A stretch of DNA of 64,000 nucleotides from Novakomyces olei (Eukaryota; Ascomycota; Novakomycetes; Novakomycetales; Novakomycetaceae). Made by a program: the position numbers and the translations under genes. The notes below the pieces were generated by a model. It saw only the letters and a list, made by a program, of their open reading frames with translations, searched no databases and was not told the origin of the DNA. Every line of letters starts with the position of its first letter. Position 1 is the first letter of the stretch. The stretch covers positions 62,001 to 126,000 of the forward strand of contig JADEYG010000005.1 of assembly GCA_016906335.1 (NCBI GenBank). The letters are read 5' to 3'. Positions 5,901 to 56,330 of the stretch are shown piece by piece.

Positions 5901-7740
5901 TCACAATCTAGCCTGAGCGAGGCTCAGCTTTGCGTCTTCTGCAATTAGCTCTGCGGCACGTTCGCCGATGGCTAAAACAGCAACCATAGGATTAATCGTC
6001 ACCATGTCGGGAAAAACGCCAGCATCAGCAATCCTCAGGTTCCTAATGCCGCGTACTTTGAGCTGCGGATCTACCACAGCCTTTGGATCGCGGGCCAGAT
6101 TGCCCATCTTTGTCGTTCCTGCTGGGTGGTAGACGGTGTGAGCAACACGTCTCCCGTACTCTGAAAGATCTTCGTCCGTTTGCACATTTGGTCCCGGAGC
6201 AACTTCGCGCTTGATCCATTCCTTGAAAGGAGACTGTTGCGCGATCTTGCGGGCGGCCTTTAGCCCCGCTACAATAGTGGCAGCATCGTAGCCCTCCGGG
6301 TCTGTAAAGTACCGGAAATCCAAAGCCGGCTTCACACTGGCATCGCTGGACACAAGGTACAATCGGCCGCGAGAACGAGGCCGCGGGATATTGGGGGTCA
6401 TACAAAAAGCATTAATGACCTCATCGTACCCCAGTCGGCTCGTATTCAACGTGAAAGGGATCTGATAACAGTGCATCATGAGATCAGCTGCCTGACCATC
6501 AAACCCAGCAGCATCTGCCGGCTCTCGGCGCAAGAAAATCCCAGCATCAGAGTCCATTGTTGTTTGGTTTGGGGGTACTGGTTTATTTAGTTCCCACAAG
6601 ATAATACTCTCCGGATGGTCCAGCAGGTTTTCCCCGACACCAGGAACATTCTTCACTACGGGAATGCCGAGGCTGTTGAGCTGCTCAGCCGGACCCAATC
6701 CTGAGAGCAGCAAAAGACGTGGGGTATCGATTGCACCAGCGCATAGTATAGTTTCCGCCTTGGCCGAGAGTAAGTGCTGCTCGCCAGATTTTAGGACGAC
6801 ATTTACACCCGTCAAAGCGTCGCCCTCAGAGTTGAAGCAGAGCTTGGAAACCCAGGCGTTGGTCAAAATAGTCAGATTAGGCCGGCTTTCCTCGCCACGA
6901 AGAATTGGGTGAATATAGGCGACACTAGCACTGCTGCGACGTCCGTCATCAGGGTTATATGACACGTTGAAGAAACCGACTCCCTGAGTCAGCTCTCCGT
7001 GCTCCCGAATCTCGTTGTTGAAATTATCGATAATTGGGATTTTCATAGCAGTAGAACACGCCTGAATCCAGTCTTTGCACAATTGGTTTCGGTGGCGCGC
7101 GTGAACGGGCTGAATTGTATTGCGCAATTGGTCAATTAGTCGGGTAAAAGTGGCAAAGTCCCAGCCTTTACAGCCTTTTGCCACCCAATTGCGGCAGTCG
7201 TACTCGAAGGGTCGGAAACTGATCAGTGTATTATGGCTCGAACAGCCGCCCAGCACTTTTGCACGCGAATGGCGAATATGCGAGTTTCCTTTACCGTTAA
7301 CACTTGCACTTGTGGATAGAGAAACAGTTTAATTTTATCACATTATTTTGACCCATTTTTTGACCCATTTTTTGACCCATTTTTTGACCCATTTTTGGCC
7401 CATTTTTGGGCTGCGTTATTTAAGGATCCCTCAATTGCATACGAAAATGAACGGCCCATTGGATTCGGGTTACAATCTTTTTAATTCTCGACTCACCATA
7501 AGGCTGCTCCACAGTGGGGTAGTCGTAATCGAGCTCGCCGCCCAAAAGACCAAGCCATTCCCTCAAATTTAAAACTTTATCGTCCATAAAATCGCTCGGT
7601 CCACCCTCGATTACGAGCACCCGCTTTTCCGGCAGGTACTGCGCCAGGCGCGCTGCAGTCACACATCCCGCCGTTCCACCGCCCACAATTATATAATCAT
7701 AATAATTATTGCTGCCCGTCGGAAGATGATTTGTAGTCAT
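5901..7740 (-). CDS. Choline-oxidase-like GMC flavoprotein
   Basis: Two exons, 7740-7497 and 7288-5901, joined after Q-P-Y-G to N-S-H-I-R-H, giving 543 aa. The FAD dinucleotide motif YIIVGGGTAGCVTAARL is near residue 15, followed by VLVIEGG. The block RHSRAKVLGGCSSHNTLI matches the choline oxidase region that carries the flavin-linked His (GGCSSHN). LDHPESI keeps the Glu that binds the trimethylammonium group in Arthrobacter CodA. HTVYHPAGT holds the catalytic His. The second catalytic position reads TINPMV, where CodA has NPN. Choline oxidases convert choline to betaine aldehyde and then to glycine betaine, releasing H2O2. It is divergent from a betaine-aldehyde-type dehydrogenase and close to a choline/GABA-type permease, which supports choline as substrate. 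Another amino-alcohol is possible. The 208-nt intron contains a 14-bp tandem repeat. Confidence 0.85.
7346..7409. repeat. 14-bp tandem repeat inside the choline-oxidase-like intron
   Basis: About four and a half copies of TTGACCCATTTTTT decay into TTGGCCCATTTTTG. All lie within the intron 7496-7289. This is probably a slippage-type minisatellite. Confidence 0.85.
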
Positions 7741-9073
7741 TACGCTCGGCAGAGGTTAGACAGCGGCTTAAACCAACCCGACTTGATTGAGCAAAAAGAT
7801 TTACAAAACAATGGTTTCGAAAAGCAAGAGCTTTGGTTTTATTTTTTTATTTTGATATTTATTTTTTATTTTATTTTTTTACTTTTTTTCTTTTTCTTTT
7901 CTTTTTTTTCTTTTCTTTTTCTTTTCCTCGAAAGACTCAGAAAAGTGTCGATACGTTTGTGCAAAGAAAAGATTTAAAGCCGAATGGAAGGAACGGCAGT
8001 TTATAAAGCACTTGTGACGGCATAGAATACCGGTAGGAACAGTAACGATTAAAAGAATACTCGCCTCCTTATCTGTCTGACTCGCAAGTAATCAGGCGCA
8101 AATTTCTATAGCGCTGTGCGTGTTATGTTATTGGCGCATTGCCCTGCTGCGTTAGTTTGGCGTTACCAAATTTGTCTTACTTTATCTGTTGTCTATGTAT
8201 CCCTCCCAATACTATGCACTGCCCTTATCAGCGAGCGGTGCGTGGTAAAAAGGGCGTAAAAATGGCATTACATTCGCAGGTTTCACTAATCTCATGCCAA
8301 ACGTGGCCCAGTTCGATCGTCGACTGTTGAGTGGGATTACCGATTGCCGGCTCGCGCTGCGGAGGGTGCTCTCCGGTCCAACCAAACAAAATTCCGACCA
8401 ACGATCAATTTCGATAAGCGTCATGTCGATCGTTGAAAGGGCTTAATTATGGTTTGTCGGCGCTGTATACGTGCCTCTAAGAGTTAAAGCGGCCATTAAT
8501 GCTTGGCCACTGCCTATATTCGGCAATTTTGCTACCTGCTGCTATACTTTATGTGACCTGCTCACAATAGGCGAGCTAATTTAAAATAAAACAAAGGTCA
8601 ATAAATAGGCAAAATAAAATACTTCCTTCTTGCAACTACTGACCGCCCTATTGACCGTAATATCGGCCACACTATCGAACTCGGCTTGTCTCTGTTTGCT
8701 ATAGTGTATCAGATCAGCGGCCATTCTCCGTAGCGCCATAGCTCAATCATTGAAAAACTCGAATCATGTATATTCCAACGTACTTTCAGTATAGAACCAG
8801 AGATTGAAGGGTTCACAAGTAGCACAGACTCACAAGTAACACAGAATACTATCTAATTAATTCCTATACTGTCGCGACAGGCTGTATCGCTTACAAAGAT
8901 ACGACAATCAGAGCCCACAATCCCGACGAATGGTCTCAGATCTGGTTCGTTCTATGATTGCAGACCATTGTACGTCGGCAACAATTTAACGGGATCGGCT
9001 ACAGTTTGTTTCTACAATTATCTTGTTTGCTGAGCTTTAGCCATTCGAATTGAGTGGGTGAGTGATTCTGGCC
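7741..9073. promoter_or_regulatory. 1.3-kb divergent promoter, GMC oxidase / ALDH
   Basis: Long shared upstream region of the choline-oxidase-like and ALDH genes. It holds a pyrimidine tract rich in T at about 7835-7926 next to the GMC start, and the 12-bp perfect palindrome CTGTCGCGACAG at 8869-8880, about 195 bp before the ALDH ATG. One CTTATC (GATA-factor core) lies near 8067. No gene is recognised. Confidence 0.5.
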
Positions 9074-10760
9074 ATGTCTGCCGACAAGTCTTTCCCCGAA
9101 CGAGGGCTCTATTATGACGGCCATGTTCAGTCAGCCTCCTCGGGCCGAACGTTTCAGTCAATTAACCCTGCCGATGCAACGATTCTGGCTGATATTCAGA
9201 TAGCCGCAGAGTCAGATATCGATGCTGCTGTTTCATCGGCTGAAAGGGCGTTCCCTACCTGGTCTCAAACACCAGCGATTGAACGTGCTCGAGTATTACA
9301 AAAAGCAGCTTTTATTTTGCGCCAACGCAACGATGAAATTGCACGAGTTGAAACTTTGGATTCTGGCAAAGCGTTTTCAGAAACAGCTGCTGTTGACGTT
9401 GCTACAGGTGCCGATGTGCTCGAATACTATGCAAATTTTATTGGCGGCGGCGGGTTAAATGGTGAAAATATACAGTTGCGCAAGGACGTTTGGGCATACA
9501 CTGTCAAGGCACCGCTCGGTGTTTGCGCCGGAATCGGCGCATGGAACTATCCCATCCAAATGTAGGAGACTTTGTTTGTCGTGAGCGTTCAATGTGTTGT
9601 TTTATACCAGTGTGCTCGCCACTTGTACATTTGTTTTTACATTTATTATTGGCTTTATTTTTTATTTTTTCGTCTCTTTGTCTTTTATAATCCTTTTTGA
9701 ATTGTGTTACATGCCAGTATTGCTGTTTGCATCTCTAACAATAAGCGCTTTATGGAAATCGGCAGCTTGCTTAGCGGCGGGCAATACGATGGTGTACAAA
9801 CCCAGCGAGTTTACTCCTCTCCACGGCCAAACTTTGGCCGAGATTTATACTGAGGCAGGATTACCGGCAGGAGCCTTCAACGTGGTACATGGACCAGGTG
9901 CAGTCGGAGCCTACCTGACGACTCACCCTGGTATTGCAAAAGTATCCTTTACCGGCCAAGTCTCGACGGGTAAGAAAGTAGCAGGGTCGGCCACGTCCAG
10001 CATGAAATACGTCACAATGGAACTCGGAGGCAAGAGCCCACTCATCGTTTGTCCTGATGCTGATTTGGAGACTGCCGTCGATGGAGCAATGATGGCAAAT
10101 TTCTATAGCTCAGGGCAAGTGTGCACAAACGGCACACGTGTTTTCGTCCCACGGCCAATGAAAGCAAGATTTGAACGGTGTCTGCTTGACAAAATTGGTC
10201 ACGTCAGACCGGGTCCATTATTTGACGAAAAGACAAATTTTGGTCCGCTTAGTTCAGCGGCTCACAGGGACAAAGTGGTCGAGTATATTTCACACGGCAT
10301 TTCGGTTGATAATGCTCTGCTTCTGTGCGGCGGACTGGGAAAGCCCAAAGTTCCCGCTGATTTGGAAGCCGGGTACTGGGTTAAGCCAACCGTTTTCACA
10401 GACTGCACTGATTCAATGCGTATTGTAAAAGAGGAGATATTTGGACCTGTCATGTGCGTTTTGTACTATGACACGGTGGAGGAAGCAGTAAGACGCGCAA
10501 ATGCCACTGAGCTAGGGCTAGCGGCCGGAGTTTTTACTAAAGATTTGAATTTGGCGCACAAGGTTATCAATCAACTTGAGGCTGGTATAACCTGGATAAA
10601 TACGTGGGGGGATAGTCCTGCAGAAATGGCTGTAGGAGGCTGGAAGAACAGTGGATTGGGTGTCGAGAACGGTCGGCGGGGGATAGAAGCTTGGCTGCAG
10701 AACAAAAGTACGCTTGTTGATATGAGCGGGTCTGTTGCAACAGTATTTGCAAAGCTTTGA
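9074..10760 (+). CDS. Aldehyde dehydrogenase, betaine-aldehyde-dehydrogenase type
   Basis: Two exons, 9074-9561 and 9746-10760, join within [15 protein letters not shown], giving 500 aa. The intron (184 nt) is T-rich and ends CTAACAATAAG. NAD(P)-dependent ALDH landmarks are present: [24 protein letters not shown], the glutamate motif [13 protein letters not shown] near residue 253, the catalytic Cys in [13 protein letters not shown] near residue 288, and [11 protein letters not shown]. The [12 protein letters not shown] form is that of betaine aldehyde dehydrogenases. The expected reaction is betaine aldehyde plus NAD(P)+ to glycine betaine, an osmolyte or methyl/nitrogen source. No targeting sequence is evident, so it is probably cytosolic. 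It shares a promoter with the choline-oxidase-like gene, so the two steps are probably co-regulated. A 4-aminobutyraldehyde or 4-trimethylaminobutyraldehyde dehydrogenase is the main alternative. Confidence 0.9.
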
Positions 10761-11436
10761 TATTTCTTTGTACTTGAAGGAAGTGAAAATAGCAGTTTTT
10801 GGGTTTTTACCTGTCCACAATTACAAATCAATCGATATCTTTCTGCTAGCAGAACTTTTCTGTTGCTATGTTTATATGCTTTGAATGGTTTCAATAGCAG
10901 TCTAGTACAAAGATAGTCGAGTGAAGTATTAAAGACTTGAAATAAACTTGAGAAATCATGAAACTATGAAATTATTGCATGGCTCGATTGGCATTGTCGT
11001 TTTAGTTAATTGTCAAGCACCCTTTTAAACTTAGTTGGCATCATTATCGTCGCCATCATAAACCTTTGAACCTGTGCGTAAAAAGGGTCTGCCTACTCCT
11101 GACCCCCCTTCTAGGTACAGGCCGAGCTCGCGAGTGATACGAGAAATATTTAATTATATTTGAGTAATACCTAGCTAACCCTAATGGCGATGCTAATGGC
11201 GATGGAATTTGGCGAGGTCAGAGCCATAATACTACGCTCTCATAAAGCCTTAATCCTTAGCGTGGGCTCCTTTTGACTCTACATATCGTCGTCCCGATTT
11301 CTGAGCAATCATTTTTTCACTACGAACGCACACGACTAAATTCAATCTGATTTAAGAGGCAAAGTGCTAGAATAAATCCATCTCACAACAAAGTAAAACA
11401 TAAAGAAGAAATACTTTTTACAAGTTTTTCTATCGC
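10761..11436. other. Tail-to-tail intergenic region
   Basis: 676 bp between the ALDH and permease 3' ends. It is AT-rich, with one CTAACCCTAA at about 11176. No gene is seen. Confidence 0.6.
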
Positions 11437-13447
11437 TCAAACTTTTGATTCGTCTCTTATCTTTCCATTTTGTGCCAAAGAAGTCTGCACGAAACCCTCT
11501 TCCCCCCGAACAGGTTGCTGATCAATTGCAGCATTTTTCCGTGGACCGATGTAATATTTATTTGCACCCGCAATCCACCAAATAAACGCAAACAGCCCAA
11601 CTCCAGCCAAAACCACAACCGCATAATTCATATTTTCCTTTGTTACCGGCATATACGTAGGGAACAGGAAAATTACAGTAACAAAACTAGTCCAAAGAAC
11701 AGCCCACAAATTAATCCAGAAAGAAAAGGGCCCAAGGTTCCACTGACCCGGTCGGTGCCCGAGCTTTTTACCCCAAATCATCCGTCCTGCGATCGGAATA
11801 CAATAACTCCAGTCTAGTGCAATCGCACATACATTGAAAATAGCAGAAATAGCGATATAAGAGCCGAAATCAATAAACCCTAGCAAAATACAGCAAACGG
11901 CCACCAGCCAAACTCCCGTGATTGGAGTTCCAGAAAAAGGGGCAACTTTTGTCCAAAAAGAAGAGAATGGAAGTGCCTCGTCTCGAGCAAAAGCAAAAGC
12001 TGTACGGCCGTTGGCTTGCATGGCAGTAATTCCGGTAAAGTTCAGGATAATAAAAGCGAAAACGGTAAAAGCGAGACCTCCGCTTTTGCCCAAGACGTTG
12101 TAAAAGATCTGTGCTACTGGTTGGCCGACGACGGAGCTGACAATATCCTCTGGGTTGCCCATCACAAATACAAGGACAATGTTAAACACCCAACCCAGCA
12201 AATACGTCAGCAACAAAGCAGAGCAAATGGCCCACGGGGCCCGTGTCTCTGCCTTTTCAATCTCCTCTGCAATATGAGCAGTGGCATCGTAATCCGTCAT
12301 GCACCAGGCAACTGAGAGAAAGCCAAACAAGAAAGAGAACCCAGGTGGATTCCATCCGCTGCTTGGTTCCACGTGAGTAAAAACGTATGACGTAGCGTGT
12401 GGCGTGTCGCACCGGACAAGCAAAGCTATTATAGCAGCAAAGACCACAATAATATGAAAAATTGCGTAGAATCTTGTAATGCGATCGAGCCAGCCGGTGC
12501 TCAACGAGTTGACGGATGCGTGAAATATAATAATGGCCGCGAATACTCCGACAGTTTGAAAATTGTTTGGCGTATAAGTGAAGTCACTACCCATGGACAC
12601 GGCAGCCAGCAGCATCTGCGCAGCTCCAAAGTCTGTCGATGCAACCCCGGCAATTTGGCCTGTCAAAGAGAGTTAGTAACTTCATGTAGGACTGGAATAT
12701 TGGATTAAGCCTTGATTTTTGGACGTCGGCAAGCAGAAGTCGAGCAAGAATAAAAAATAAATAAGTAAATAAATAAGTAAATAAGTAAATAAATAAATTA
12801 CCCAAAAAATTTAGCCAGCCGCAGACCCACGATACGATGGGCACATATGGTTTTGGAATTACTTCTCCACACACAAAGTAAAGCCCACCAGAAGTCGGGT
12901 ACGACGAAACCAGCTCGGCCACGGAAAGCGCGATGCACATGCACCCGAATCCTCCAATGAGCCACGCCCAAACAATACACGCTGCTCCGCCCGCATCTAG
13001 CGGGTACAAAAATGTTGTCGCAACTGTAGCATAAAGACCCGAAATCGAAAAGGCAAATGAAAACGTAGACAGCATTGAAAACTCGCGTTTGAACACCTGT
13101 GCATTTAGCCGACGCAATGATAACCAGAAATTGAATAACCCCGAATGTCGTGCGTCTTTGAGCGGGAAACAAAAACTACTGTACAAAGGATGGTAAACGG
13201 CAATGTAAATTAAAATTAAATAAATAAATAAAATAAAGGCACAAAGCAAAGACGCCAACGAACGACAGGATTGTGGCAGTATAGTGCTTACCGGCTTGTA
13301 GCCTAACTCGGCGAGCATGCGGTCCTCATTTGAAAGCTCCTGGAGTCCCGGTGCTTCGTTGATGGACGATTCCTTTGCACCAGACGATTCGCCCACACGC
13401 ACCCATTCCGCCGATTTGCCGTTTGCATCCGTCGAGCGAATACTCAT
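11437..13447 (-). CDS. APC-family permease, choline/GABA permease type (Hnm1/Uga4-like)
   Basis: Three exons, 13447-13292, 13096-12802 and 12659-11437, giving 557 aa. The hydrophilic N-terminus reads DRMLAELGYKP-VFKREFSML, the standard entry into fungal choline/GABA permeases. Next come FSISGLYATVATTFLYPLD, GGAACIVWAWLIGG and ELVSSYPTSGGLYFVCGEV, and later HIAEEIEKAETRAPWAI and MQANGRTAFAFARDEALPFS. About 12 membrane segments are visible. Family members import choline, ethanolamine, GABA or related amines with protons. The intron at 12801-12660 carries an AAAT/AAGT microsatellite and ends TACTAACTCTCTTTGACAG. Its location next to choline-oxidase and betaine-aldehyde-type genes makes choline or betaine uptake the best guess. 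GABA or amino acids remain possible. Confidence 0.87.
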
Positions 13448-14817
13448 TGTGTATATACAGATTACTTTTCGCGCTGTCTCTGCTCAACACTGTGCTCGAG
13501 TAACAGGTACGATCTCGAAGACTTTAGAGATCTTTGCAAGGCTGGGGAAGCCTTATAAATTGGCCTGCTCATTATTGTATGAGAGATAAACAATCAGATA
13601 TCATTTCCAGACGGAAAAAAGGCTGATATGACATCAAGTATAGTCGATCATAATTACGTTTATTGAGCAGCTATTCGTTCGGAATATGAGGGGTTTCCTG
13701 CGTTTTGATTAGTCCATTACCCACGGACGGGCCTTAACGGGTAAGCTTTGGCGCTGAGGACGCGATAAGAATATAAGCCTGGTTGCCCGCAACTGCTGTG
13801 CGACTTGACAGAGCACTAAGCCTTGGTTCCAAGTAACGCAGATGCAATAATTAAAAGGTCTAGTTATTGCATAATTTATTCATCCCACGCACAATTGCCG
13901 ACCCGGCAATATATAATAACTGAAAATATTGAAGTAATGCTATAGGCACTCGGTACCCTGGGCCTTATCGTGCCTTGGGCTAGAATTCCGAGAGAGCCGA
14001 AGAGGGTCCAAGGGCAGAAGCCTCGGATCTATGTCTCTTGATTGCCGCAGATACCGGTTGCATTTGTGGGTTGTAGACGTTGCAGATTGCCGGTTCTAGA
14101 CCATCGTATTCGGTATAGCGCGAGCATCCGCGCCAAGGTGAGACTTTTGTTCCATCCTTTTGGCGTGCTAGATAGAGTCTTGGGAGCAGCCGGGACTTGC
14201 GTACTACCCCGCTTTTCTTCAATTTTCTTGACCCTATATATTGGTAACTATAATTTTTTTGGAAAATGTACTTTTCTCGATTGTACGGATGAATTGCCAA
14301 GCTGCATGAAGAGCATGGCTGCCTATAGTGGGTGCAAAGATGTCATTTTAGAAATCCCCTTATCTTAGTTTAATTATACTTGCATCTAGACTGGAAAAGC
14401 GGCATTTGAGTGTGCAACATTGGTCAGCAAAAGCATACGCGAATGGTGTTAACCAATCATTGCATACCAATTGCTCGTTTACGTTCCCCTCAAAAGCCAT
14501 GTCACGAAAAAAGTGCAAGTATTTTCCATATTACCAGTGTCGCGAGCCAGCAACCATTCTTTCCTTAAACATAATATGCTTGAACAATCGTCATATCAAA
14601 TGGGAACGGATGCTCTACTGCGGCAAATATCAATGGCCTTAAATTGCTGATTTCTGGCAAACCTACTAGCCTTGGCTATCGTGAAACTGTACTTTTGCAC
14701 TATAGTGATATGCGTTTGTTTAAATATAACAGCTCTGCCTAGAGCCGACCGAATAAAAATAAAACCGCTTCATGTCTAAATACGTCTAAAACTGATTATT
14801 GCTGTGCATCACAATAC
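13448..14817. promoter_or_regulatory. Upstream region of the APC permease with an inverted repeat
   Basis: 1.37 kb between the permease start and the 3' end of the PhyH gene. It holds the inverted repeat ATTGCCG-ACC-CGGCAAT at 13894-13910 (7-bp arms, 3-nt loop) and GATAAG at 13764-13769. Short open frames here show no family signature, so I call it non-coding. Confidence 0.5.
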
Positions 14818-15950
14818 TCATTCCTCGATAATCTCCCGGTTGGAGCCAGCGATCCATTCTTCCTGCAAAGCGAAAAACTCCTTGATACGTCCCACGTTGG
14901 TCTTGTTTCCGGCAGCATGTTGCGCTTCAAGCTCTTCAAGCATGAGTTTGAGCCGGCTCTGTAAAACTTCAACTCTGTATTTGGCCCACTGATAGTATAA
15001 CTCAGAATGCTCAGTGATTGGCCGAATTGTAGTGAGGACTGAAGAGTCGGGAATAAGCGGGTCCTTGGGACGGAACGAGGTGATCATTGTAATCCGCTCG
15101 TTCCCTCCGATTGATCCGAGTGCTTGATGGAGAACGTGTCTGCCCTGCAGAATCACTGCGCTTCCCTAAAGAAAGAATTAGCTTTTATACATTTACGTTT
15201 CCAATTTGGCATTTATGTCTCCAATTTGGCATTATCTTACCATTTTAGGTCCTCGGATCTTTAATATATCTCCCGTGCCTGTTTGCAGTGCAGTTTCACC
15301 TCCCGTCATCTCCGAGGTATCGCTCATCATGACGACACAAACGAACGGATAGCTGTCATGGTGCCATTTGGTGACTGGAACATCGTCCGGGGACTGGTTG
15401 GCCTGTTTTGCAAAGACATTCTTCTGCGAATCTTCCTTTACAGAGATATTCAGATTGCCAATTTCAAGATCCATTATGGGAACGAGCTCAATGCCAGCAA
15501 TTTTCGAAACAATGGACAAAAGCTTGGGGTCATTCCATGCTTGGTACATGAATTGCGCGTACCTAAACAGATTTGTCAGTATGCAAGTTGCCTCTGAGCA
15601 GTCGCTTGTGCTTACTTTGGACTATGCGCCCGAATCTGGCAGCTGGCAAACGACGAACTGTACATGCAGTTGCCGAAGACTTCATCGGTAAAAAACTCGT
15701 TCCTCATAATCTGAATAGCATCGTCCGTGAACAGCTCAAACGGCTCAGAAACAGCGACTGGTGATATGCCCGAGTCTTCGGGAAAGCCCAAGTCTTTAAA
15801 GGTGGTTACCTTGGGGTACTCGTTGAACGACAGGTGCTGCTCGGCATTGAACTTTGAGGCGGCAGCATCGTCAAGGCTCTTGTTGCTGCGAGAGATGATA
15901 GGGTTAAATTTTAACGCGTCAAGCGGAGAAGGAACCACAACTTCACCCAT
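14818..15950 (-). CDS. PhyH-like Fe(II)/2-oxoglutarate dioxygenase, paralogue A
   Basis: Three exons, 15950-15616, 15562-15241 and 15165-14818, giving 334 aa. Phytanoyl-CoA-dioxygenase-fold landmarks: VTKWHHDSYPFVCVVMMSD carries the iron-binding HxD, GGETALQTGTGDIL follows, then the distal His in QGRHVLHQALG and the co-substrate Arg in ERITMITSFRP. The C-terminal third is a charged helical region (LQSRLKLMLEELEAQH). These enzymes hydroxylate, and sometimes thereby demethylate, small organic substrates. The nearest relative in the window is the intronless gene at 33151-34158 (WHYDQVQFVALLMLSDTSSM). Its partner across the 755-bp promoter is a different PhyH subfamily. The substrate is unknown. 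Position among choline/betaine-type genes makes an N-methyl compound a reasonable guess only. The last intron (15240-15166) contains a duplicated CCAATTTGGCAT. Confidence 0.82.
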
Positions 15951-16705
15951 TCTGCTTTTCCAGGTTTTGCTTTTATATTTGCTCTTTTATATTTGGTCTT
16001 TTATGTTTCTCTTTTGACAAAGGCCTCGGCGCAAACACGTACAATACCACTCTTACACCGTCAGTGCCACAAGACCAACACTCTCTTTGCCTCCTCGTCC
16101 CCGCACCCTTCAATTTATAGTGGTAAAATTCCGACCCGCGTCGAGTCCTCCTTATTTTGCGACGCTTAATCAGCCTTTGTGTGCGCCGAAACGCTCTGCT
16201 CCTTTAGGAAAGATAACTAGCTGAAAGCCTGGTTCTCTTGTTCCGTAGATCCTGCAAAGTAATGCAGCAGCCAGAATTCCGACGTTATCCTAACGCTGTC
16301 TTAACTTAATCTAGTGGTACATTATCACACAAGTCTAGCCAGCAAGACTAGACGTATATATCCCACCTGTCGGATTAAACTAATCCTGTCACTCTAGAAA
16401 TTCCGACACATAATGAAACCCGACATGGATGGATAAGGATCGAAATGGGACTTGGCAGCCCGGGATTCGTTTACCGTTCAAGTAATAGAGATTCCGAGAT
16501 ATGCCTCTAATGGATCGATGACATGGCGCTCAGCGTTGTTAAAACGGACTCAGGAGTACCATTTAATTAAAGAGTACCATTTGATTGGGACTTTTCCGAG
16601 ACAAAGCAGCCGTCTGGCCCACGAGCGTAAAGCAGTTCAGTATAAATAGCACTGCTTGTTTGTGGACACTGACGCGAGTTTCTGTATTCCTTTCCGAGAT
16701 CGGGT
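15951..16705. promoter_or_regulatory. Divergent promoter between two PhyH-like genes
   Basis: 755 bp. A direct repeat GAGTACCATTT occurs at about 16554 and 16572. TATA-like TATAAAT lies at about 16640, roughly 65 bp before the rightward ATG. No gene is recognised. Confidence 0.5.
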
Positions 16706-17774
16706 ATGGGATCTCCAGTGGCAAGGCCGCGACCGGCGCCTATTGACCCGTCCTACAAGCCAACTGCGTCAATTGCAAAGATCCCAGCGAGCTCAGACAT
16801 TTCAGATATTCTGGAGGTCATTGAGCGGGATGGCGGTGTTATTCTGACAGATTTTGTTGCCGAACCCGACTTGGCGGCCGTCGACGAAGAGCTCGATAGT
16901 TACAGCAGCAAGCAGGTCCGTACGACAGACAAGAGCGCACTGCATATAATCCCAAAAGAAACGCTTGCTATTCCCGGTCTCGTCGGCAAGTCCGACACAA
17001 TGGCCCATATCTGCAGCGAAAACCCTGTACTGGAGCAGCTGCGCACATACATTTTGGAGGACAAGTTTGACGTTAACCGCGAATCGTACATTGAGAAGAA
17101 CACGATTGATCCAATTTTGAGCATTAGTATTACTCTGCACATCGGGTATGGCGCTCCTCGCCAAGTCTTGCACCGCGACGATAACACGCATGGCACTAGA
17201 CACAGCGAAGAGTTTAATCTAAGGAAAGCCGGTCAGTTTGCCTGCTTGATTGCCGGCTCCAAGACCACTAGAGAAAATGGTGCTACTATGTTTATTCCGG
17301 GCTCGCATAAATGGGACGACAAACGGGTGCCCCGCTTGGACGAAGTTTGCTTCGCAGGTATGTTTTATTTACAACGTTTAGACGACTAAATGTTTCCCCA
17401 ATCAAAACATGGAAAAACGCAAATTACAGCTAGATATTCAAGCTCATTATATTGGTTTTGATTTTATTTCTAACCCGTTTATAGAAATGGAAAAAGGATC
17501 AGCACTAATTTTCCTGGCCTCCTGCTACCATGGGGGAGGCCACAACGCCGTACCCGACGAAACCCGTAAAATTCACGGACTTTTCTTTGTTCGGGGTACA
17601 ATGCGGACCGAGGAGAACCAGTTTTTGGCTATACCCAGAAGCAAAGTTTTGAAAATGAACGACAAAATGCTCACGCTTCTGGGCTACAAGAAGCCTACAA
17701 CTGTTTTGGGCATTGTTGAAAACGAAGATCCTGCTCAAGATCTGCAGGGAGTCTTTGCACGCAATGCCGCTTAA
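16706..17774 (+). CDS. PhyH-like Fe(II)/2-oxoglutarate dioxygenase, subfamily B
   Basis: Two exons, 16706-17357 and 17485-17774, joined at DEVCFA-E-MEKGSALIF, giving 313 aa. The intron ends CTAACCCGTTTATAG. The protein shows the fungal layout: a DGGVILTDFV entry, LHIGYGAPRQVLHRDDNTHG with the iron-binding HRD, GATMFIPGSHKWD, and SCYHGGGHN with the distal His, followed by RGTMRTEEN. This layout resembles fungal secondary-metabolite and ectoine-hydroxylase-type PhyH enzymes more than paralogue A. Expected chemistry is Fe(II)/2-oxoglutarate-dependent hydroxylation, desaturation or endoperoxidation of an unknown substrate. It shares its promoter with paralogue A, so co-expression is likely. No targeting signal is seen. 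Confidence 0.82.
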
Positions 17775-18285
17775 ATTTTTGTTGGAGGGATATGATAGAT
17801 GAATTTGTTTAATGTCACTTTGTGCAGAGAGAAAAGTTCCGAATCGTGGTCTCAAATTACAATAGATGGCGTATTATATAAAATCTCAACACGTAATAGA
17901 TTCATGTCGGCAGTAACAATTTCAAAGTACTGTCTGCGGAATTATTGCTACTTTCAAAAGTAGAAATAACAAAAGCACATAGTTACATTTGCATTCAATC
18001 AAGCCTTCAGTCCAAATCATATTCAGGTAAAACCGACCGTTGAAATAATTCTCTCTAAAACTGTCAATTTACAGTCAAACCCCAAGTGCTGATTTTGAAA
18101 ACACAAAGGGTAGACAAAAGAATGTACCAGCGATTCTGAACTTTCCACATTCATGTCCAATTGGCTTAAAATAGCTAGCAAAGAAAACTTGACAGGCACC
18201 CATTTATCTGGTATCTTTAATTTCTTCATTCGCTAACAAAAAGACTAAATTTACAACAAGGTCATTGCTAGAGAGTACACTGTCC
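17775..18285. other. Tail-to-tail intergenic region
   Basis: 511 bp of AT-rich sequence between the PhyH-B and Zn2Cys6 gene 3' ends. No coding frame with a family signature is seen. Confidence 0.6.
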
Positions 18286-20217
18286 CTAGGCATCCTCACC
18301 GAAAAATTCCAAATCAAACTCATCAAACCCGGGAGCCAAATCATTTGGAATAGTACGCGCGTAATAATCGCCAGCAGCTTCAGAACCAGCAGCTTCAGAG
18401 CTACTCAATAAAAGCTCAAAAGACGAACAAAAAGACACAGCTTTGGGGTATTTGTCCACCATGGCCTGTAATGACTGGCCACATAGCCCAATACATTCAT
18501 TCATTTCCGCTTTTTTGGGATTCTGTAGAATATTAAAATTCATGCGCACGTAAATCAACGTTGTGCCTGCTAAAAACAAATTACGTGAATGCTGCCAATA
18601 AACCCTAATTTTTCGTGCATCATGTAACTTTTTGTAAAGGCATATTAAATTAATGCAGATATTAATTAGAGCAAGCCATGATGCTGGGTTCGGAGAAGGT
18701 ATTGCCGGTGAAGGTGCGTGCAAAACGCGTAAAAGATTAAGGTAGATAAGGTCAAAGGATTCTACTGGTGTAGTAGCATTTTCATTTGGTATTGCTGGCC
18801 TTTGAGAATGCCACCACTCAATTTTCGCATTAAAATTAGTGGCCCAAGCTTGAACATTAAAATCTCCATAGAGCTGAGGAGTTTTCATATACAATACTTG
18901 GTGGGCTTCAGACTGGAGTTGACGGCATCTGAACCAATGAAGAGCACACTTCTTTTTTTGCGGTAGTAAATCCTGCATATCTAATATTCCATCTTCGCTT
19001 ATATATGCATCGTTTACGGTAGACGGAAACTAGAATTTAGACAAAGAAACTAAAATTGAAGAAGTTGAGCCAAATAAATAAACAAATATAATATAACATC
19101 GCGAATAAAATAAAAGAAGGGTTTTATGAAAACGGGTGTGGTCAAAGCCCAGAGGTTAACAAAACGTACAGGGAATCACTGCTATAATCGACCTTACTTT
19201 TATATCAATAACTTCATCTGGTATGAAAAAAGGCCGTCGAAAAACAACGCATATTGTCCGTTCCATCTCGTAAAGCGTCCAAAATACTCTGCGTCGTCTG
19301 TCAAAGTACAGCACATCTTCATCTCCATCTTCTGCTACTACCTCACGGTGAAGGTCTAATTGAAGGGCTAATCGAGCGCAGAATCCTGTGGCCTGCCACA
19401 TCCCTCCACAATTTGGATGTATAAAGCCATGCTGGCATAGCAAAAGCATACTTTCAAGCCCGTTCAAGTCATCCCCAAAAACTTGAGGCACCACAAACCG
19501 AATAGCCAAGTGAAAATGGTCTTCGGAGCACGAAAAAGGGACTTTAAGGTCCTTTCTATGGCTGATCAAGTAGGCAATCGCAAACACGAGATGTAATTGG
19601 AACAGGTCCTGCCTTAGTTCAATAGAATCTTCGATGTTTGTAGACTCCTGCATATTGTAAACATTACGCACGCGATCCATGAATGTCTGGAACTTGAACA
19701 ATGGAGTTCCAAACTCGGCAAAGTCAAAATACGCGGTAACAAGAGACATTGCCGTATCAAAAGTCGGAAGGCTGAACTTGGTCTGCCGCTCTATCGGTAA
19801 CGGATCGTTTGTAGGTATGCCTACTGCACCAATCAGAGCTCTTCGAATTTCATCAGACACGCTAACTTCCGATGCTTCCTGGCTCGATTTACCACTCTTT
19901 AGCGGGACGGCTTTGCTGGGTTTGCTGCCGTCATATTGAGCAACTTTTTGCTCAAGGTCGTAAAGGTAGCTTTAGCGTTAGTTAGCCAAGTAAACAGCAA
20001 TAGTGTTTGCCAACCTTCGAGATATTTCACGGCCCGTGATACTGTCAATGGACAAGCAATCGGCACCTGCCAATTCACAGTTTGTGCACGCCTAATCGCA
20101 ATTCAATATCAATATGCACATCAGACAAAATCTTACGGGGAGTCTTTGATCGCACCGCTTTTTCCTTTTCCGACATCGTGAACAGGAAGTCAAGTTTCCG
20201 CGCGCGACAGAGGTCAT
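18286..20217 (-). CDS. Zn2Cys6 transcription factor
   Basis: Four exons, 20217-20137, 20091-20015, 19969-19198 and 19029-18286, giving 557 aa. The zinc cluster is split by intron 1. Exon 1 gives C-S-R-C-RKRKKR-C-DQRLP and exon 2 gives A-C-T-N-C-ELAGAD-C, all six cysteines in canonical spacing. A short coiled linker (SYLYDLEQKVAQYDG) follows. The fungal-specific middle homology region follows (GGMWQATGFCARLALQLDL, RRRRVFWTLYEMERTI) and an acidic tail (DEFDLEFFGEDA) ends the protein. Intron 2 uses an unusual GTTGGC donor with a GCTAACTAACGCTAAAG end. It is nuclear, and binds CGG-containing DNA as a dimer if it behaves like its family. Located centrally among oxygenase, oxidase and permease genes, it is a candidate cluster-specific activator. 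CGG-N6-CCG sites lie in two nearby divergent promoters. Confidence 0.9.
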
Positions 20218-20667
20218 TTACAAGGAACCTACATGGATCCGTCAATGGCCGCAGTTGGTCCTGTTTACCTAATATTGCGCACAGGTACATTACTATGAAT
20301 GCCCGATAATATAAATTAGGGTTAGTTAGGATTATTGTGTTTTCTGTTTAGCGGTCTTATCAGTTTCTTCATACATATTACATTTGCATCATATTTTTGT
20401 TAGTTTGATGAAAACATGGTTAACCGTCGGGATTGGACACCACCCGATTTACCCTAATCTGACTGAAAGAAATGCTGCTTTGGATCATCTAGTTGGATCA
20501 TCTAGTCTTGTACGAATCCGAGTTTTGATTATAAAGTTTTAATATAATGTATTCTATCATATGCATCCTAAAGCAGCCGAAACCCCGGTCTATTCAATTC
20601 AAAAAATGGTGCTACCATGTTCATTCCGGTTCAGACTTGCATGAAAAGAGTATTCTTACCAGTCAAT
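20218..20667. promoter_or_regulatory. Upstream region of the Zn2Cys6 regulator
   Basis: 450 bp between the regulator start and the 3' end of the flavin oxidase. It includes a perfect 13-bp tandem duplication of GGATCATCTAGT(T/C) at about 20482-20507. Nothing else is recognised. Confidence 0.5.
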
Positions 20668-22105
20668 TCACAAATGTGCCCTTAATTCACGCATGGCATC
20701 TTTTAGCCGCGTGGTCTTGTCTATTGTCTGCTCCTGGCCCGGTTTCTTCCATGCCCATAATTTACAAAGCTCTGGGTCTAATTTACCCTCCAAGCGGTCG
20801 CATACAAAAGAACCGATGAGTGGTAGAAACTTCCATCCGTGCAAAGACCCGCAAGTAGCTGCAAAGAGTCCTTTAACGGCAGGATGAGGAGCAATTACGA
20901 AATTGCCATTAGGCGATGTGGCATCCCTGGCATTATTAGCACAGGCATTGATAAAAGTGTAATAGTTTAGAAGGGTCGCTCTCTTTTGTCGCTCTCTTTT
21001 GTCGCTATTTACGTTTCCCCTTATTTTCCTTTACTTACCAGCAAAGTTTTGTCGCAACAAAAGGACGTTCAGCGAGGGAGGGCATCATTTCGTGCAGATC
21101 TTTGCGTAAAGCGTTTTGAATGTCCATCGGAACTTGATTCTCCTTGGATTTGCTGAGAATTTCAGGCAAAGATAAGCGAGTCTGAAGCCCCCTTTGCTGC
21201 TCCGAGAAGCGAGGATGCGGGACGCTGACCGTGTTACAGAACCCGGGCCATCTTCGCAAGATCTTGACGCGTCCCTTGTGAGGGGGAAAGAGGTTAAACC
21301 CGGTACTCAGGTTTGTGGTAATAGACATCTTGGACCACTTTTTTTCTTCTGCCTCGGTGACGGGGATAAAGGCTACGGGAATAGCATAGACTTGCGTCTC
21401 TGACTCGAGATCGAGCAGCCTTGTTGACCAGGCTCCCGCAGCGACAATCACGAGCTGAGCATAAAGCACGGAACCGGATTCCAATTCAACCCCCGTAACA
21501 GCTTGGCCATCCGGCGTATAAATCAGTCTCTGCACTGCCTTTCCCGTGACAAAATGAATCGTTTTGTGGGCGAGGCATTTGTTATAATAAACACGGATAC
21601 ACTCCTCCGCGTCGGCCATAGAGGCAGACAAATTGCAGTACCCAATGTTCCACTGAGCCGGCCGGCCCAGCTCGGCCTCAGTAGGGCACTGTGCGTCTTG
21701 TCCGTGGATTCTAGTGTAAATCTCCCGGCGGCCCGGGCTCAAAGCGACACGCTGATTTGCGCGTTTAGCGTTCTCCAGTCCCGTCGTCCATTCGTCCTCA
21801 GCGTCCCCACGTGTGCCATCGTATACGAATGACATGCCCTTGTTATACACATGCTTAGACAGCTCTGGGTCCTGGGCAAAGGCCTGCTGGGCTCTTTTGG
21901 CCAGCTCAGTATAAGTCTTATCCGCATAGTCGGCTCTGACGCACCGATTCAAATCCGTACTTGCTCCGTCCGAGACCGGCGGAGTCTGACGGTCAACGAC
22001 GGTAATTCTCGTGCTCGGGTACCGCTCAGCGAGTTCAAGTGCCGTAGAGAGCCCGAAAACGCCGGCACCAACGACAATAACCGATTCTGGTGGACTCACG
22101 GCCAT
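20668..22105 (-). CDS. DAO-family flavin oxidase (sarcosine / fructosyl-amino-acid oxidase type)
   Basis: Two exons, 22105-21039 and 20926-20668, giving 441 aa. The ATG at 22105 precedes the FAD fold SVIVVGAGVFGLSTALELAE; the frame continues upstream without an ATG. Other landmarks are VVDRQTPP, a SSLNR-like ASTDLNRC turn, VIVAAGAWSTRLLDL, and near the end KLCWDATSPNGNFVIAPHP followed by GSLHGWKFLPLIG. The Cys in KLCWD sits where MSOX and fructosyl-amine oxidases attach FAD covalently. The family oxidises secondary or tertiary amines (sarcosine, dimethylglycine, pipecolate, glycated amino acids) with O2, giving an imine and H2O2. The intron (21038-20927) splits W-D just after that Cys. It shares a promoter with a Dal5-type carrier. 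With the choline/betaine-type genes nearby it could demethylate dimethylglycine or sarcosine; fructosyl-amine oxidation is an equal alternative. Confidence 0.85.
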
Positions 22106-23053
22106 ACCTCCTTCTAACGCTGAGCCAATCGGTACCAAACCCCAATCTTATTGCAGCCAAGCGGCGACGAGCATTTATATAGACGCTAAAAGTATGCACA
22201 GGCGGAGGACGTGTGCCGCCAATCAACGGTCCTCGGCGACGTCCTGTCGGCGATCGCCGTCGGAGGCCGACTCGTGCCACTAATGATAGAAAATGTAGTA
22301 CTAGTTCATTATTATATCAGAGAAAATCACGTAATGTGTTTTATTCAAGGTTTACAGTATTGGCAAGAGGGATTCAGTTTAAAAATTTATAATGCTGAAC
22401 CTGTCACTTTGCTTGAAGGCACTTTTTACACTATCGGCACTATCGGCACTCGGCTACGCTTTAGCGTTGCGATTGCCGGTTCGGCGATCAAAAGTTCCTT
22501 ATCCGCTTGCTTTGTCAAACGTGCACGTATTACATAATCTGCAGTTGGAGAGATAAAGTATGGCTGTAAACAAGTATTTTTTAATTTAGTGGTTTTACTG
22601 TAATTTAGTGCTTTAATAATATTTAGTGCGTTTAATAATATTCGGTGCTTTTACTGTAATTTAGTGAGGCTCTTACCTATTATTCAGTGCTTTTACTATA
22701 GAAAAATAACCATATAATCCAATTTTCTATCGCGATAAGAGCTCTGCACGTGTGCCTTATCTACGAACCTTCAAACGGCGGTGAATGGAGGCGCGACTGG
22801 CCAAAGTCTAATGATATCATACGGTACGCAATAGCAGCAATTACTATCGCGATAACGTGACTCTTTGAAAATTGCGTTATACATGATTTGCTGCAAGTGC
22901 GATGCGCGGGGCCTACAGCGGACTTCGGCGATCGGCGACAACTGGACGCGATACCGTTATCGACAAAACTTTATCAACGACAGAACCTGAAAACTAGGGT
23001 CGAGCGGCTTTATATAAACACATGAAAACTGACAAACTCACAAAGTAGACACG
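22106..23053. promoter_or_regulatory. Divergent promoter, flavin oxidase / Dal5-like pair
   Basis: 948 bp. It contains the 12-bp perfect palindrome CGGCGATCGCCG at 22248-22259 (CGG-N6-CCG), and two copies of the 10-bp palindrome TATCGCGATA at 22728-22737 and 22845-22854. GATAAG cores lie at 22734, 22756 and 22498 (the last two on the minus strand). An imperfect repeat of TTTAGTGNTTTTACTGTAA occupies about 22585-22700. Confidence 0.55.
22585..22700. repeat. Imperfect tandem repeat in the flavin oxidase/Dal5-like promoter
   Basis: Five to six degenerate copies of a unit built on TTTAGTGCTTTTACTGTAA, with TTTAATAATATT variants. The region is AT-rich and non-coding. Confidence 0.6.
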
Positions 23054-25022
23054 ATGGAGGATACCATGAAGACTCTGACGACCCAGCAAATCTCTGACGA
23101 AGGTCAAAAGATCGCTGGCAATGTGGAAACAGTCTACACCACTGAAGACGACATCAAGAAAAAGAGCGGTGGCGATGCGGCTTTGCGTTTCTTGCAAGAA
23201 AACGAAGGCACTTTTACCTTTACGGTTGAAGAGGAAAAGAAGGTTTTGCGTAAAATAGACTGGCACGTTATGCCTTTGCTTTGCATGCTTTACGGATTGC
23301 AGTACTTGGGTACGTGACTACCGCTTGGCAATTTAATCCTAACTTTTTTCAAAGACAAGATATCTCTAAGTTATACGACCGTCATGGGATTGGAGGAGTA
23401 CGCGCACTTGGCCGGGCAGGACTACAGTTGGCTTTCTTCCCTGTTTTATTTTGGGTACCTCGGATTTGTTTTCCCTGCCAGTATGATCTTGCAAAGGTTT
23501 CCCATTGCCAAAGTGCTCGGGAGCTTTCTGCTTGTGTGGGGGAGCTTGCTGCTTTTACATGCTGCTGCATCCAATTTTGGTGGGTTCGCCGCCTTGAGGT
23601 CTGTTCATACCCAAAAACGCGATATGTGACGAGTTTACTGACTTTTGTAAAGGATTCTGTTGGGCATATTTGAGAGCGCAATTACTCCAGGATTCATGTA
23701 CGCAGTTCTGCTTGGGACAACTGACTAATATTAGGCTGATTACTTCGCAATGGTACCGGGCTTATGAACAGACGACTCGCACTGGCATATGGTTTTCTAT
23801 GAACGGTCTTGCACAGATGGTCGGCGCTGTTGTGGGTAAGTTTTGGCTTTCTTTCATATATTTCGGATTGAAAAGTCTGACAGATTTAGCGTATGCTATT
23901 GCGACTGGGTCTCAAAACAACAATTTTACGGCTATTCCAGCGTTCAAATTCATCTTTATTTATCTCGGTGGTCTGACAGTTATACTCGGCTCAGTGTTTC
24001 TGTTACTGTTCCCCGACTCACCGGCAACCGCAAAATTTTTAACCAAGGAAGAAAAGATGATTGCTCTTGAGCGTATCAGAGACAATAACCAAGGAATTAA
24101 GAATGAAGAATTCAAGCGGTACCAGTTTATCGAAGCTTTACGAGATCCTTTGACCTGGCTTTACTTCTTTTCTTCGTTCATTCAGAATATTGTATGAAGA
24201 CTTTACTGCATAAAACTTTGTGCTAACTTTACACAGCCAAATGGTGTTATGAGTAACTTTACAAGTCTAATCATTGATGGCAAGATTATGATTCATATTC
24301 ACTTTGCTAACGACTTTCAGGGTTCGGATTCTCCGATACAATGTCTCTTCTGCTGCAATTGCCCGGTGGTTTCATTGAACTGACGACCTACATGTTTTTC
24401 GCTTGGCTTGCTGATCGAACCCGCCAAAAGAATCTGTGGGCAATTCTCTCTCTTCTCCCTACTATCGCCGGATTTGCAATCATGGTACCAGTCCATGGTC
24501 CTCATGATCGCGGAGTACAGCTTTTCGCGTATTACCTCACGTATACGTCGTCTGCAATTTGGCTGGTCATGCTCAGTTTGATTTCTACTAATACTGCCGG
24601 ATACACAAAGAAGGGCACAGTGAGCGCTATTAACTTGTAAGTGATTTGAGCTTCAATTGTTAAACTTTTTTTTTTCAATTCGTCTCGATTACTAATTTGA
24701 TACAGGATTGGATATTGTCTCGGAAATATTGTTGGACCACATTTGATCTCGGCTGACGACGCACCTACTTACATTACAGCAAAGACGGTGGTATGTTAAA
24801 CGGCAATTTTGTTATATTGTGAACATATCTAACTTTCAGGTTCTGGTCTTCCTTATCGTGACTGTTGTGTTTCAAGGTGTAATATGGCTTTACTGCTTCT
24901 TGGTAAACCAGCAGAAAAGACGCAGGCTGGCTGAGGCGGGAGATAGCTATACACGACAGGCAAATCAGGAATTTCTTGATTTGACGGACAGAGAAAACTT
25001 GGAATTTCTGTACGTCCTTTGA
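23054..25022 (+). CDS. Dal5/anion:cation symporter-type MFS transporter, paralogue 2
   Basis: Nine exons: 23054-23309, 23355-23598, 23653-23697, 23735-23835, 23890-24191, 24237-24279, 24321-24636, 24706-24790 and 24840-25022, giving 524 aa. Landmarks in order are KIDWHVMPLLCMLYGLQYLG, DKISLSYTTVMGL, QDYSWLSSLFYFGYLG, ILLGIFESAITPGFM, SQWYRAYEQTTRTGIWFS, LADRTRQKNLW, STNTAGYTKKGTVSAINLI and FLDLTDRENLEFLYVL. These are the canonical Dal5-family signposts, and 12 membrane segments are expected. Intron 6 (24280-24320) starts with GC, not GT: G/GCAAGA, with TGCTAACGACTTTCAG at its end. The gene shares a promoter with the flavin oxidase, suggesting that it imports that enzyme's substrate or a related carboxylated amine. 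The paralogue at 3377 has only four introns, so the pair is not a recent tandem copy. Confidence 0.9.
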
Positions 25023-56205: not shown

Positions 56206-56330
56206 ACCGCTCTGTACTTCCTTTGGCTCAACGCCAGGATTGAATATGTAACCAAGGACAGCTAATATATGGAGAGTGGTAATTTTTTGTTATTTCGCTC
56301 ATTACGCTTTTTATTATATATATTTTTTTA

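What the first reader, a model, noticed from the sequence alone, without database searches (positions are those of the whole stretch)
5901..25022. Candidate fungal choline/glycine-betaine catabolic gene cluster
Seen: a choline-oxidase-like GMC protein and a betaine-aldehyde-type ALDH share a promoter. They are followed by a choline/GABA-type permease, two divergent PhyH oxygenases, a Zn2Cys6 regulator, and a sarcosine-oxidase-type flavin oxidase divergent from a Dal5-type carrier. Known: choline to glycine betaine uses the first two enzymes, and secondary N-methyl amines are oxidised by DAO-family enzymes. Inferred: the Fe(II)/2-oxoglutarate oxygenases could carry out betaine N-demethylation, replacing the bacterial Rieske and Sox enzymes. 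As far as I know that would be an undescribed eukaryotic route.
Basis: partly seen in the sequence, partly recalled or inferred. Interest (0 to 1): 0.72.

Follow-up and report, generated by a model that had tools for sequence, protein, structure and literature searches.

The report
Fungal choline-to-betaine catabolic gene cluster
A fungal genome carries a probably co-regulated block of genes that takes up choline-like compounds and oxidises choline to glycine betaine, next to iron- and flavin-dependent oxidases that may strip the methyl groups off betaine; one of these oxidases is a close cousin of enzymes from the fungal swainsonine pathway.

Summary
The genes are real and at the stated coordinates. 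The first half of the reading holds: a choline oxidase with its catalytic residues in place, a betaine-aldehyde dehydrogenase over one of two curated cut-offs, an APC permease and a true Zn2Cys6 regulator. Choline oxidase, ALDH and flavin oxidase end in peroxisomal-type tripeptides (ARL, AKL, AHL). A 12-base motif found 6 times in 14.3 Mb lies in three cluster promoters (choline oxidase/ALDH, permease, flavin oxidase/carrier) and inside one oxygenase gene; GATAAGG sites are enriched. Joint, nitrogen-type control is likely, not proven. The demethylation half stays inference. No Rieske oxygenase and no DMGDH/SARDH-type match was found in the genome, so betaine breakdown, if it happens, needs something else. 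Corrections: only one oxygenase is PhyH, and it is a SwnH1/SwnH2-type enzyme (58%/52% identity); the other belongs to no Pfam family and is called a 2OG oxygenase by motif alone; the flavin oxidase is a diverged fructosyl-amine-oxidase-family protein. A choline-to-glycine route in a fungus (A. nidulans) is already in print with a different enzyme set. Conservation in relatives could not be tested.

The parts
5901..7740 (-). Choline oxidase (GMC family), 543 aa, one intron 7496-7289; C-terminus ARL
   Evidence: PDB best match choline oxidase (2jbv) E 3e-119; residues equivalent to H99, E312, H351, V464, H466, N510 kept, S101 is Thr; exons
8342..8353 (+). Motif GATTGCCGGCTC in the GMC/ALDH promoter
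9074..10760 (+). Betaine-aldehyde dehydrogenase, 500 aa, one intron; C-terminus AKL
   Evidence: NCBIfam PRK13252 equivalog 705.3 bits, cut-off 593; TIGR01804 BADH 609.6, below its cut-off 668.6
11437..13447 (-). APC (amino-acid/choline-type) permease, about 557 aa, exons 13447-13292, 13096-12802, 12659-11437
   Evidence: AA_permease_2 248.5 bits; first intron set by eye, agrees with the 88% paralogue on C2
14085..14096 (+). Motif GATTGCCGGTTC upstream of the permease
14818..15950 (-). OxA: unclassified putative Fe(II)/2OG oxygenase, 334 aa, HxD (179-181), H232, R243
   Evidence: no Pfam/NCBIfam family; these residues invariant in three paralogues
16706..17774 (+). OxB: SwnH1/SwnH2-type Fe(II)/2OG dioxygenase, 313 aa, one intron; H156, D158, H233
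   Evidence: PhyH 71.9 bits; PDB SwnH1 365.8 bits, SwnH2 340.4 bits; 57.6% and 52.3% identity
17248..17259 (+). Motif GATTGCCGGCTC inside the OxB coding region
18286..20217 (-). Zn2Cys6 transcription regulator, 518 aa in the model, Cx2Cx6Cx6Cx2Cx6C
   Evidence: model; Zn_clus 36.9 bits and Fungal_trans 47.2 bits
20668..22105 (-). Flavin amine oxidase of the fructosyl-amine/sarcosine oxidase family, 441 aa, C-terminus AHL
   Evidence: DAO 108.2 bits; PDB fructosyl-amine oxidase 124 bits, monomeric sarcosine oxidase about 50 bits
22471..22482 (+). Motif GATTGCCGGTTC in the flavin oxidase/carrier promoter
23054..25022 (+). Dal5-type MFS carrier, 518 aa and six introns in the model
   Evidence: MFS_1 80.8 bits; model; the Dal5 label is by resemblance, not by a family model

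Best explanation
This is a fungal choline-utilisation cluster under a Zn2Cys6 regulator and nitrogen (GATA-type) control. Choline enters through the permease and is oxidised to glycine betaine by choline oxidase and betaine-aldehyde dehydrogenase, both with peroxisomal-type C-termini. Betaine is then broken down as a nitrogen source: a DAO-family flavin enzyme is not expected to oxidise a quaternary nitrogen (recalled chemistry), so an Fe(II)/2OG oxygenase (most likely the SwnH-type OxB, possibly OxA) hydroxylates an N-methyl group and releases formaldehyde, giving dimethylglycine; OxA and/or the flavin oxidase take the remaining methyl groups to glycine. Shown: gene identities, choline-oxidase residues, BADH call, promoter motif, no match for the known betaine and dimethylglycine enzyme domains in this assembly. 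Inferred: uptake substrate, compartment, regulator-motif pairing and every demethylation step.
For: Choline oxidase and BADH assignments. Motif GATTGCCGGYTC: 6 exact copies in the 14.34 Mb assembly, 4 of 6 inside 14.1 kb of this cluster, 3 of them in the promoters of GMC/ALDH, permease and flavin oxidase/carrier (reversed control 2). Permutation: 6 shared 12-mers, 1 of 600 shuffles reaching 6; 2 shared 13-mers, 2 of 600 reaching 2. GATAAGG 7 in 4.4 kb of the four promoters, 2 in 7.9 kb of nine other intergenic stretches, 0 of 200 shuffles reaching 7. No Ring_hydroxyl_A match, no FAO_M match; Rieske domain in two places only, which I read as an AIF-like protein and the bc1 protein; one S-methyl_trans match, whose only solved relative is a homocysteine S-methyltransferase. 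C-terminal ARL, AKL, AHL (PTS1 rule recalled). SwnH1 or SwnH2 is proposed to make an iminium at a carbon next to N (PMC5473758, passages).
Against: No substrate, expression or synteny data. The motif was first picked by eye from these promoters; at least one shared 12-mer occurs in 149 of 600 shuffles and in 31 of 126 quadruples of other intergenic stretches, and the looser 10-mer is not clearly enriched (5 in the window, 2.6 expected from control loci). GATAA as such is not denser than in other stretches (4.5 against 5.3 per kb). The OxA/OxB promoter lacks the motif; its AATTCCGA copies were found post hoc. A TauD/Dal5/flavin-oxidase/permease block recurs at C7:60-70 kb without choline genes (ORFs read by eye), so such neighbours may just mark nitrogen-scavenging regions. 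The flavin oxidase has at least five other family members in the genome. OxB is nearest to alkaloid hydroxylases. Betaine can be an osmolyte end product. In another fungus, dimethylglycine oxidase, sarcosine oxidase and Rieske proteins appear together among up-regulated genes (PMC5545021, passages), so a 2OG route need not be general.
Confidence: 0.45

Rival explanations
1. Two modules side by side: choline to glycine betaine (osmolyte or methyl reserve) and an unrelated nitrogen-scavenging set in which the flavin oxidase and Dal5 carrier handle a secondary-amine acid (fructosyl amino acid, opine, saccharopine or pipecolate) and the oxygenases act on other small amines.
For: Flavin oxidase nearest to fructosyl-amine oxidases; similar Dal5/TauD/flavin-oxidase/permease block on C7 without choline genes in its 10 kb; the window continues with other permeases, OxC and a DUF1989 protein to about 46 kb; A. 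fumigatus choline oxidase discussed as osmoregulation (PMC2556354, passages).
Against: Shared rare motif links the choline oxidase/ALDH, permease and flavin oxidase/carrier promoters; GATAAGG sites in all four promoters; the flavin oxidase is far less FAOX-like (124 bits) than its C7 paralogue (216 bits).
Confidence: 0.35
2. The oxygenases demethylate or hydroxylate another betaine (carnitine, proline betaine, trimethylated amino acids) whose breakdown joins the choline enzymes, not glycine betaine itself.
For: SwnH relatives are proposed to act on cyclic amines (PMC5473758, passages); OxB differs from both SwnH1 and SwnH2 just after the HxD motif (N160, T161 for M, I), which suggests a different substrate.
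Against: No gene specific to carnitine or proline betaine was recognised among the 15 window genes scanned with Pfam; this was not searched genome-wide.
Confidence: 0.12
3. A secondary-metabolite (swainsonine-like) cluster.
For: OxB is 58%/52% identical to SwnH1/SwnH2, and SwnT is described as related to a choline transporter (PMC5473758, passages).
Against: No NRPS-PKS, NmrA-type reductase or aminotransferase among the 15 window genes scanned with Pfam, and no open frame of NRPS-PKS size in the window lists (longest 1302 aa, a PRP16 helicase). The largest frame met by a KR search (C7:2.32 Mb) has AT, ACP, KR and dehydratase matches and no adenylation domain in the 2077 of 2615 residues scanned. 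No search for adenylation domains was run genome-wide.
Confidence: 0.04

Closest known systems
Aspergillus choline oxidase / betaine-aldehyde dehydrogenase pathway (A. fumigatus CODA; A. nidulans AN1430 and dimethylglycine oxidase AN8654)
   Same: Choline to betaine by the same two enzyme families; A. nidulans takes up choline as carbon and nitrogen source and is proposed to carry betaine on to glycine (PMC4830055, passages; PMC2556354, passages)
   Different: This genome gives no FAO_M match, so no dimethylglycine-oxidase-type protein was found; a SwnH-type and an unclassified oxygenase lie in the cluster instead
SwnH1 and SwnH2 dioxygenases of the swainsonine (SWN) clusters
   Same: OxB is a full-length homologue with the Fe ligands kept; SWN clusters also carry a transporter described as choline-transporter-related
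   Different: No SwnK-like gene seen here; residues after HxD differ; context is choline oxidation. SwnT itself was not compared with the permease
Bacterial choline/betaine catabolism (GbcAB Rieske demethylase, DMG and sarcosine oxidases; recalled)
   Same: Same chemical sequence proposed
   Different: No Ring_hydroxyl_A match in the genome (Rieske control)
Fructosyl-amine oxidase / monomeric sarcosine oxidase family
   Same: Flavin oxidase is a full-length member; the CW segment aligns with fructosyl-amine oxidase
   Different: Only 124 bits to FAOX and about 50 to MSOX; substrate undetermined

Membership tests
Choline oxidase | Full-length GMC homology with flavin-linking His and catalytic His/Asn/Glu set of A. 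globiformis choline oxidase | tested here: met
   His99, Glu312, His351, Val464, His466, Asn510 kept, Ser101 to Thr (roles recalled)
Choline oxidase | Oxidase activity on choline | not testable with these tools
   needs enzyme assay
Bacterial choline dehydrogenase (BetA) | Over a curated choline dehydrogenase cut-off | tested here: not met
   PRK02106 302.5 of 605 bits, TIGR01810 260 of 732.1
Betaine-aldehyde dehydrogenase | Score over a curated BADH equivalog cut-off | tested here: met
   PRK13252 705.3 over 593; TIGR01804 609.6 is under its 668.6
PhyH (PF05721) | OxB over gathering score | tested here: met
   71.9 over 22 bits
PhyH (PF05721) | OxA over gathering score | tested here: not met
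   no Pfam family; profile comparison with PhyH proteins gave probability 0.3% (only 3 against 3 sequences)
Fe(II)/2OG oxygenase superfamily (OxA) | HxD...H...R plus double-stranded beta-helix fold | tested here: inconclusive
   motif residues invariant in three paralogues; fold not obtained, pLDDT 35.8; best Pfam E 0.15 in one of three
SwnH1/SwnH2 family | Full-length high-identity homology and Fe(II) triad | tested here: met
SWN swainsonine cluster | swnK NRPS-PKS linked to swnH genes | tested here: not met
   no such gene among scanned window genes or long window frames; genome-wide only a KR search was made
Monomeric sarcosine oxidase | Curated soxA_mon model over cut-off | tested here: not met
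   77.8 against 479.65 bits
Fructosyl-amine oxidase family | Full-length homology | tested here: met
   activity untested
Bacterial-type betaine demethylation | Rieske oxygenase with Ring_hydroxyl_A domain in the genome | tested here: not met
   0 matches; Rieske domain control finds two places, read as AIF-like and bc1 proteins
DMGDH/SARDH/dimethylglycine oxidase route | FAO_M domain protein in the genome | tested here: not met
   0 matches; 14 of 42 DAO candidates were scored and their frames read
Conserved cluster in related fungi | Co-location in relatives | not testable with these tools
   G000 has no relatives held

The most novel reading that the evidence does not exclude
Betaine N-demethylation in this fungus is done by a SwnH-type Fe(II)/2OG dioxygenase, with OxA (a family without a Pfam model) and a diverged flavin oxidase finishing the job. 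The swainsonine hydroxylases SwnH1/SwnH2 and the transporter SwnT would then descend from a choline/betaine catabolic cluster whose oxygenase already attacked carbons next to a cationic nitrogen.
Probability: 0.22. Interest if true: 0.75.

Novelty: new variant of a known kind. Interest (0 to 1): 0.52.

Why it matters
Linder (PMC7033051; [quoted passage not shown] Whether this genome is a budding yeast was not tested; it gives named candidate genes for the question. If OxA or OxB demethylates betaine, eukaryotes would have another chemistry for it beside methyl transfer to homocysteine and the bacterial Rieske route (both recalled). It would also give the swainsonine oxygenases an origin in primary metabolism.

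Tried and rejected
Structure of the OxA family: AlphaFold2 on OxC with OxD and OxA exons gave mean pLDDT 35.8; the model was discarded and no fold search was made. Bacterial relatives: pattern scans of genome contigs confirmed none for the OxA family or OxB; such scans are of limited reach. Profile comparison of the OxA family with three PhyH proteins found nothing, as did a profile search of solved structures (best E 1.2, unrelated proteins). OxA alone gave two BsmA-domain sequences at E 0.48 and 0.94, not usable. A shorter motif core (10-mer) was not clearly enriched, so only the 12-mer is used. The permease found no solved relative, so its substrate is unsupported by structure. Paper searches for a fungal or 2OG betaine demethylase or a choline oxidase/PhyH/sarcosine oxidase cluster: none of the titles and abstract starts listed names one; the lists were cut (25 of 32; 15 of 25; 15 of 55), and the library is open-licence PMC only. 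The old Cylindrocarpon didymum enzyme work is recalled, not found (0 occurrences in the 15 papers listed). PMC9030584 (passages) and PMC12731236 (one passage) added nothing used here. Organism identity: a PRP16 search of solved structures ranks human above S. cerevisiae (species of those chains recalled) and settles nothing. A swainsonine cluster was considered because of OxB and set aside.


Full report
Setting. The window is bases 62001-126000 of a 438,701-base contig in a 14.34 Mb, 15-contig genome. Most gene models have introns (GT..AG, often with a TAAC-type branch site).

Observation. Three divergent pairs (GMC/ALDH, OxA/OxB, flavin oxidase/Dal5 carrier) frame a permease and a regulator. 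Pfam supports all but OxA.

Choline to betaine. The GMC protein's best solved relatives are choline oxidases (E about 1e-119 to 1e-115; the next entry scores 217 bits against 391-402). It is 47.5% identical over the four of six aligned blocks that I counted, and the residues equivalent to His99, Glu312, His351, Val464, His466 and Asn510 are kept, Ser101 being Thr (roles recalled). It is far under the bacterial choline dehydrogenase cut-offs. Two GMC matches were found in the whole genome, a lower bound. The ALDH passes the PRK13252 betaine-aldehyde dehydrogenase cut-off (705.3 over 593) but misses TIGR01804 (609.6 under 668.6). The two proteins end in ARL and AKL, and the flavin oxidase in AHL, all fitting the recalled peroxisomal rule [SAC][KRH][LM]; OxA, OxB, permease, regulator and carrier do not.

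Regulation. By eye GATTGCCGGYTC stood out in three promoters. In the window it has four exact copies: 8342, 14085 and 22471 in promoters and 17248 in the OxB coding region. In the whole genome it has six, against two for the reversed pattern. Among 12-mers shared within one mismatch by at least three of the four promoters, all six are this motif; 1 of 600 dinucleotide shuffles reached six, although 149 of 600 had at least one shared 12-mer, as did 31 of 126 quadruples of other intergenic stretches. For 13-mers the figures are 2 observed, 9 of 600 with any, 2 of 600 with two or more. The evidence is therefore moderate, and the selection by eye must be kept in mind. GATAAGG, a GATA-factor type site (recalled), occurs 7 times in 4.4 kb of these promoters, in all four of them, against 2 in 7.9 kb of nine other intergenic stretches; 0 of 200 shuffles reached 7. 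GATAAG is 2.3 against 1.3 per kb, and plain GATAA is not denser than in the other stretches (4.5 against 5.3 per kb). The regulator has a textbook Zn2Cys6 cluster, and the motif's CCGG fits that class of protein (recalled); no binding was tested. The OxA/OxB promoter lacks the motif and instead holds three AATTCCGA copies, with one each in the GMC/ALDH and permease promoters and none in the nine others; AATTCCGA[CG] has 5 copies in the window against 2.6 expected from 97 kb of other loci. This was found after the fact.

The oxygenases. OxB is not a generic PhyH protein. It matches SwnH1 (365.8 bits, 57.6% identity) and SwnH2 (340.4 bits, 52.3%) of the swainsonine pathway; the next structure scores 84.7 bits. 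Its Fe ligands H156, D158 and H233 are kept, but two residues after the HxD motif differ from both (N160, T161 for M, I), so its substrate is probably different. A search with OxB found no second copy in the genome at E<=0.001; the Pfam search finds other, more distant PhyH genes. OxA, OxC (33151-34158) and OxD (C7, about 105.9-107.1 kb) form a family at 33-43% identity with an invariant HxD, a distal His and an Arg eleven residues later, as in 2OG oxygenases (recalled), but OxA matches no Pfam or NCBIfam model and no usable structure could be predicted. The description of SwnT as choline-transporter-related, and the proposal that SwnH1 or SwnH2 makes an iminium at the carbon next to nitrogen (PMC5473758, passages), make a shared chemistry plausible. 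SwnT itself was not compared with the permease.

The flavin oxidase. It is a full-length member of the fructosyl-amine oxidase/sarcosine oxidase family, nearest to fructosyl-amine oxidases (124 bits) and weaker to monomeric sarcosine oxidase (50 bits). The genome has at least five other members (some read from one exon only), and the one on C7 is much more FAOX-like (216 bits). Its substrate cannot be read from sequence.

What was not found in the genome. No Ring_hydroxyl_A match; the Rieske domain search, which serves as a positive control, finds two places, which I read from their frames as an AIF-like fusion and the bc1 protein, without a family search on them. No FAO_M match, so no DMGDH, SARDH or dimethylglycine-oxidase type protein was found. 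The one S-methyl_trans match has a homocysteine S-methyltransferase as its only solved relative at E<=0.001; betaine-homocysteine methyltransferase, recalled to be in that library, did not appear. These searches read exon by exon and are lower bounds.

Against the reading. A Dal5 carrier, a TauD oxygenase, a FAOX-type oxidase and a permease, read by eye from open frames, also sit together at C7:60-70 kb with no choline gene in that 10 kb, and the window goes on for another 20 kb with further permeases, OxC and a DUF1989 protein. Proximity in such regions is weak evidence on its own; the shared motif is the better argument, and it does not cover the OxA/OxB promoter. Nothing here shows that betaine is broken down at all.

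Literature. A. nidulans takes up choline as carbon and nitrogen source and up-regulates BADH and dimethylglycine oxidase on choline (PMC4830055, passages). In Colletotrichum, dimethylglycine oxidase, sarcosine oxidase, Rieske proteins and choline transport appear among genes up-regulated in infection (PMC5545021, passages). A choline-to-glycine route in a fungus is therefore not new; the enzyme for betaine to dimethylglycine is not named in the passages I read. For budding yeasts the pathway and enzymes were stated to be unidentified in 2019 (PMC7033051, three of four parts). In nine searches of the held library no listed title or abstract start names a fungal or 2OG-dependent betaine demethylase; three of those lists were cut.

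Verdict. A real, probably co-regulated choline-utilisation cluster with a SwnH-type oxygenase in it. The betaine-demethylase idea is a good, testable hypothesis that this work sharpens (which enzyme, and which known enzymes were not found here) but does not prove.

Noticed in passing
window 1351-5229: A TauD/TfdA dioxygenase (166.8 bits) and a Dal5-type MFS carrier are divergent across 544 bp just outside the finding; a similar TauD + Dal5 + FAOX-type oxidase + permease block sits at C7:60-70 kb (L031).
   Followed up: partly
window 33151-34158; L030 4892-6121 (-): OxC and OxD, paralogues of OxA; an oxygenase-like family without a Pfam model.
   Followed up: partly
window 37440-39137 (+): Fusion of DUF1989 (178 bits) and polysaccharide deacetylase; the DUF1989 part resembles a stretch of the trimethylamine N-oxide demethylase model (124 bits, far under its 1100 cut-off).
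   Followed up: no
G000 C2:1517600-1519375 (L043): A second copy of the cluster permease, 88-91% identical over most of its length, with no choline enzyme recognised beside it in 10 kb.
   Followed up: partly
G000 C3:361011-364593 (L001): The only other GMC oxidoreductase match lies about 1.5 kb from another member of the same permease family (31% identity).
   Followed up: no
G000 C7:2318501-2324732 (L042): Part of a 2615-residue open frame, a polyketide synthase with AT, ACP, KR, dehydratase and a phosphopantetheinyl-transferase-like end.
   Followed up: partly
window 26745-28960 (+): Permease-like gene whose model scores poorly; wrong intron choices or decay.
   Followed up: no
window 56228-56578: Simple repeat open on both strands (KTQDN-like repeats).
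   Followed up: no
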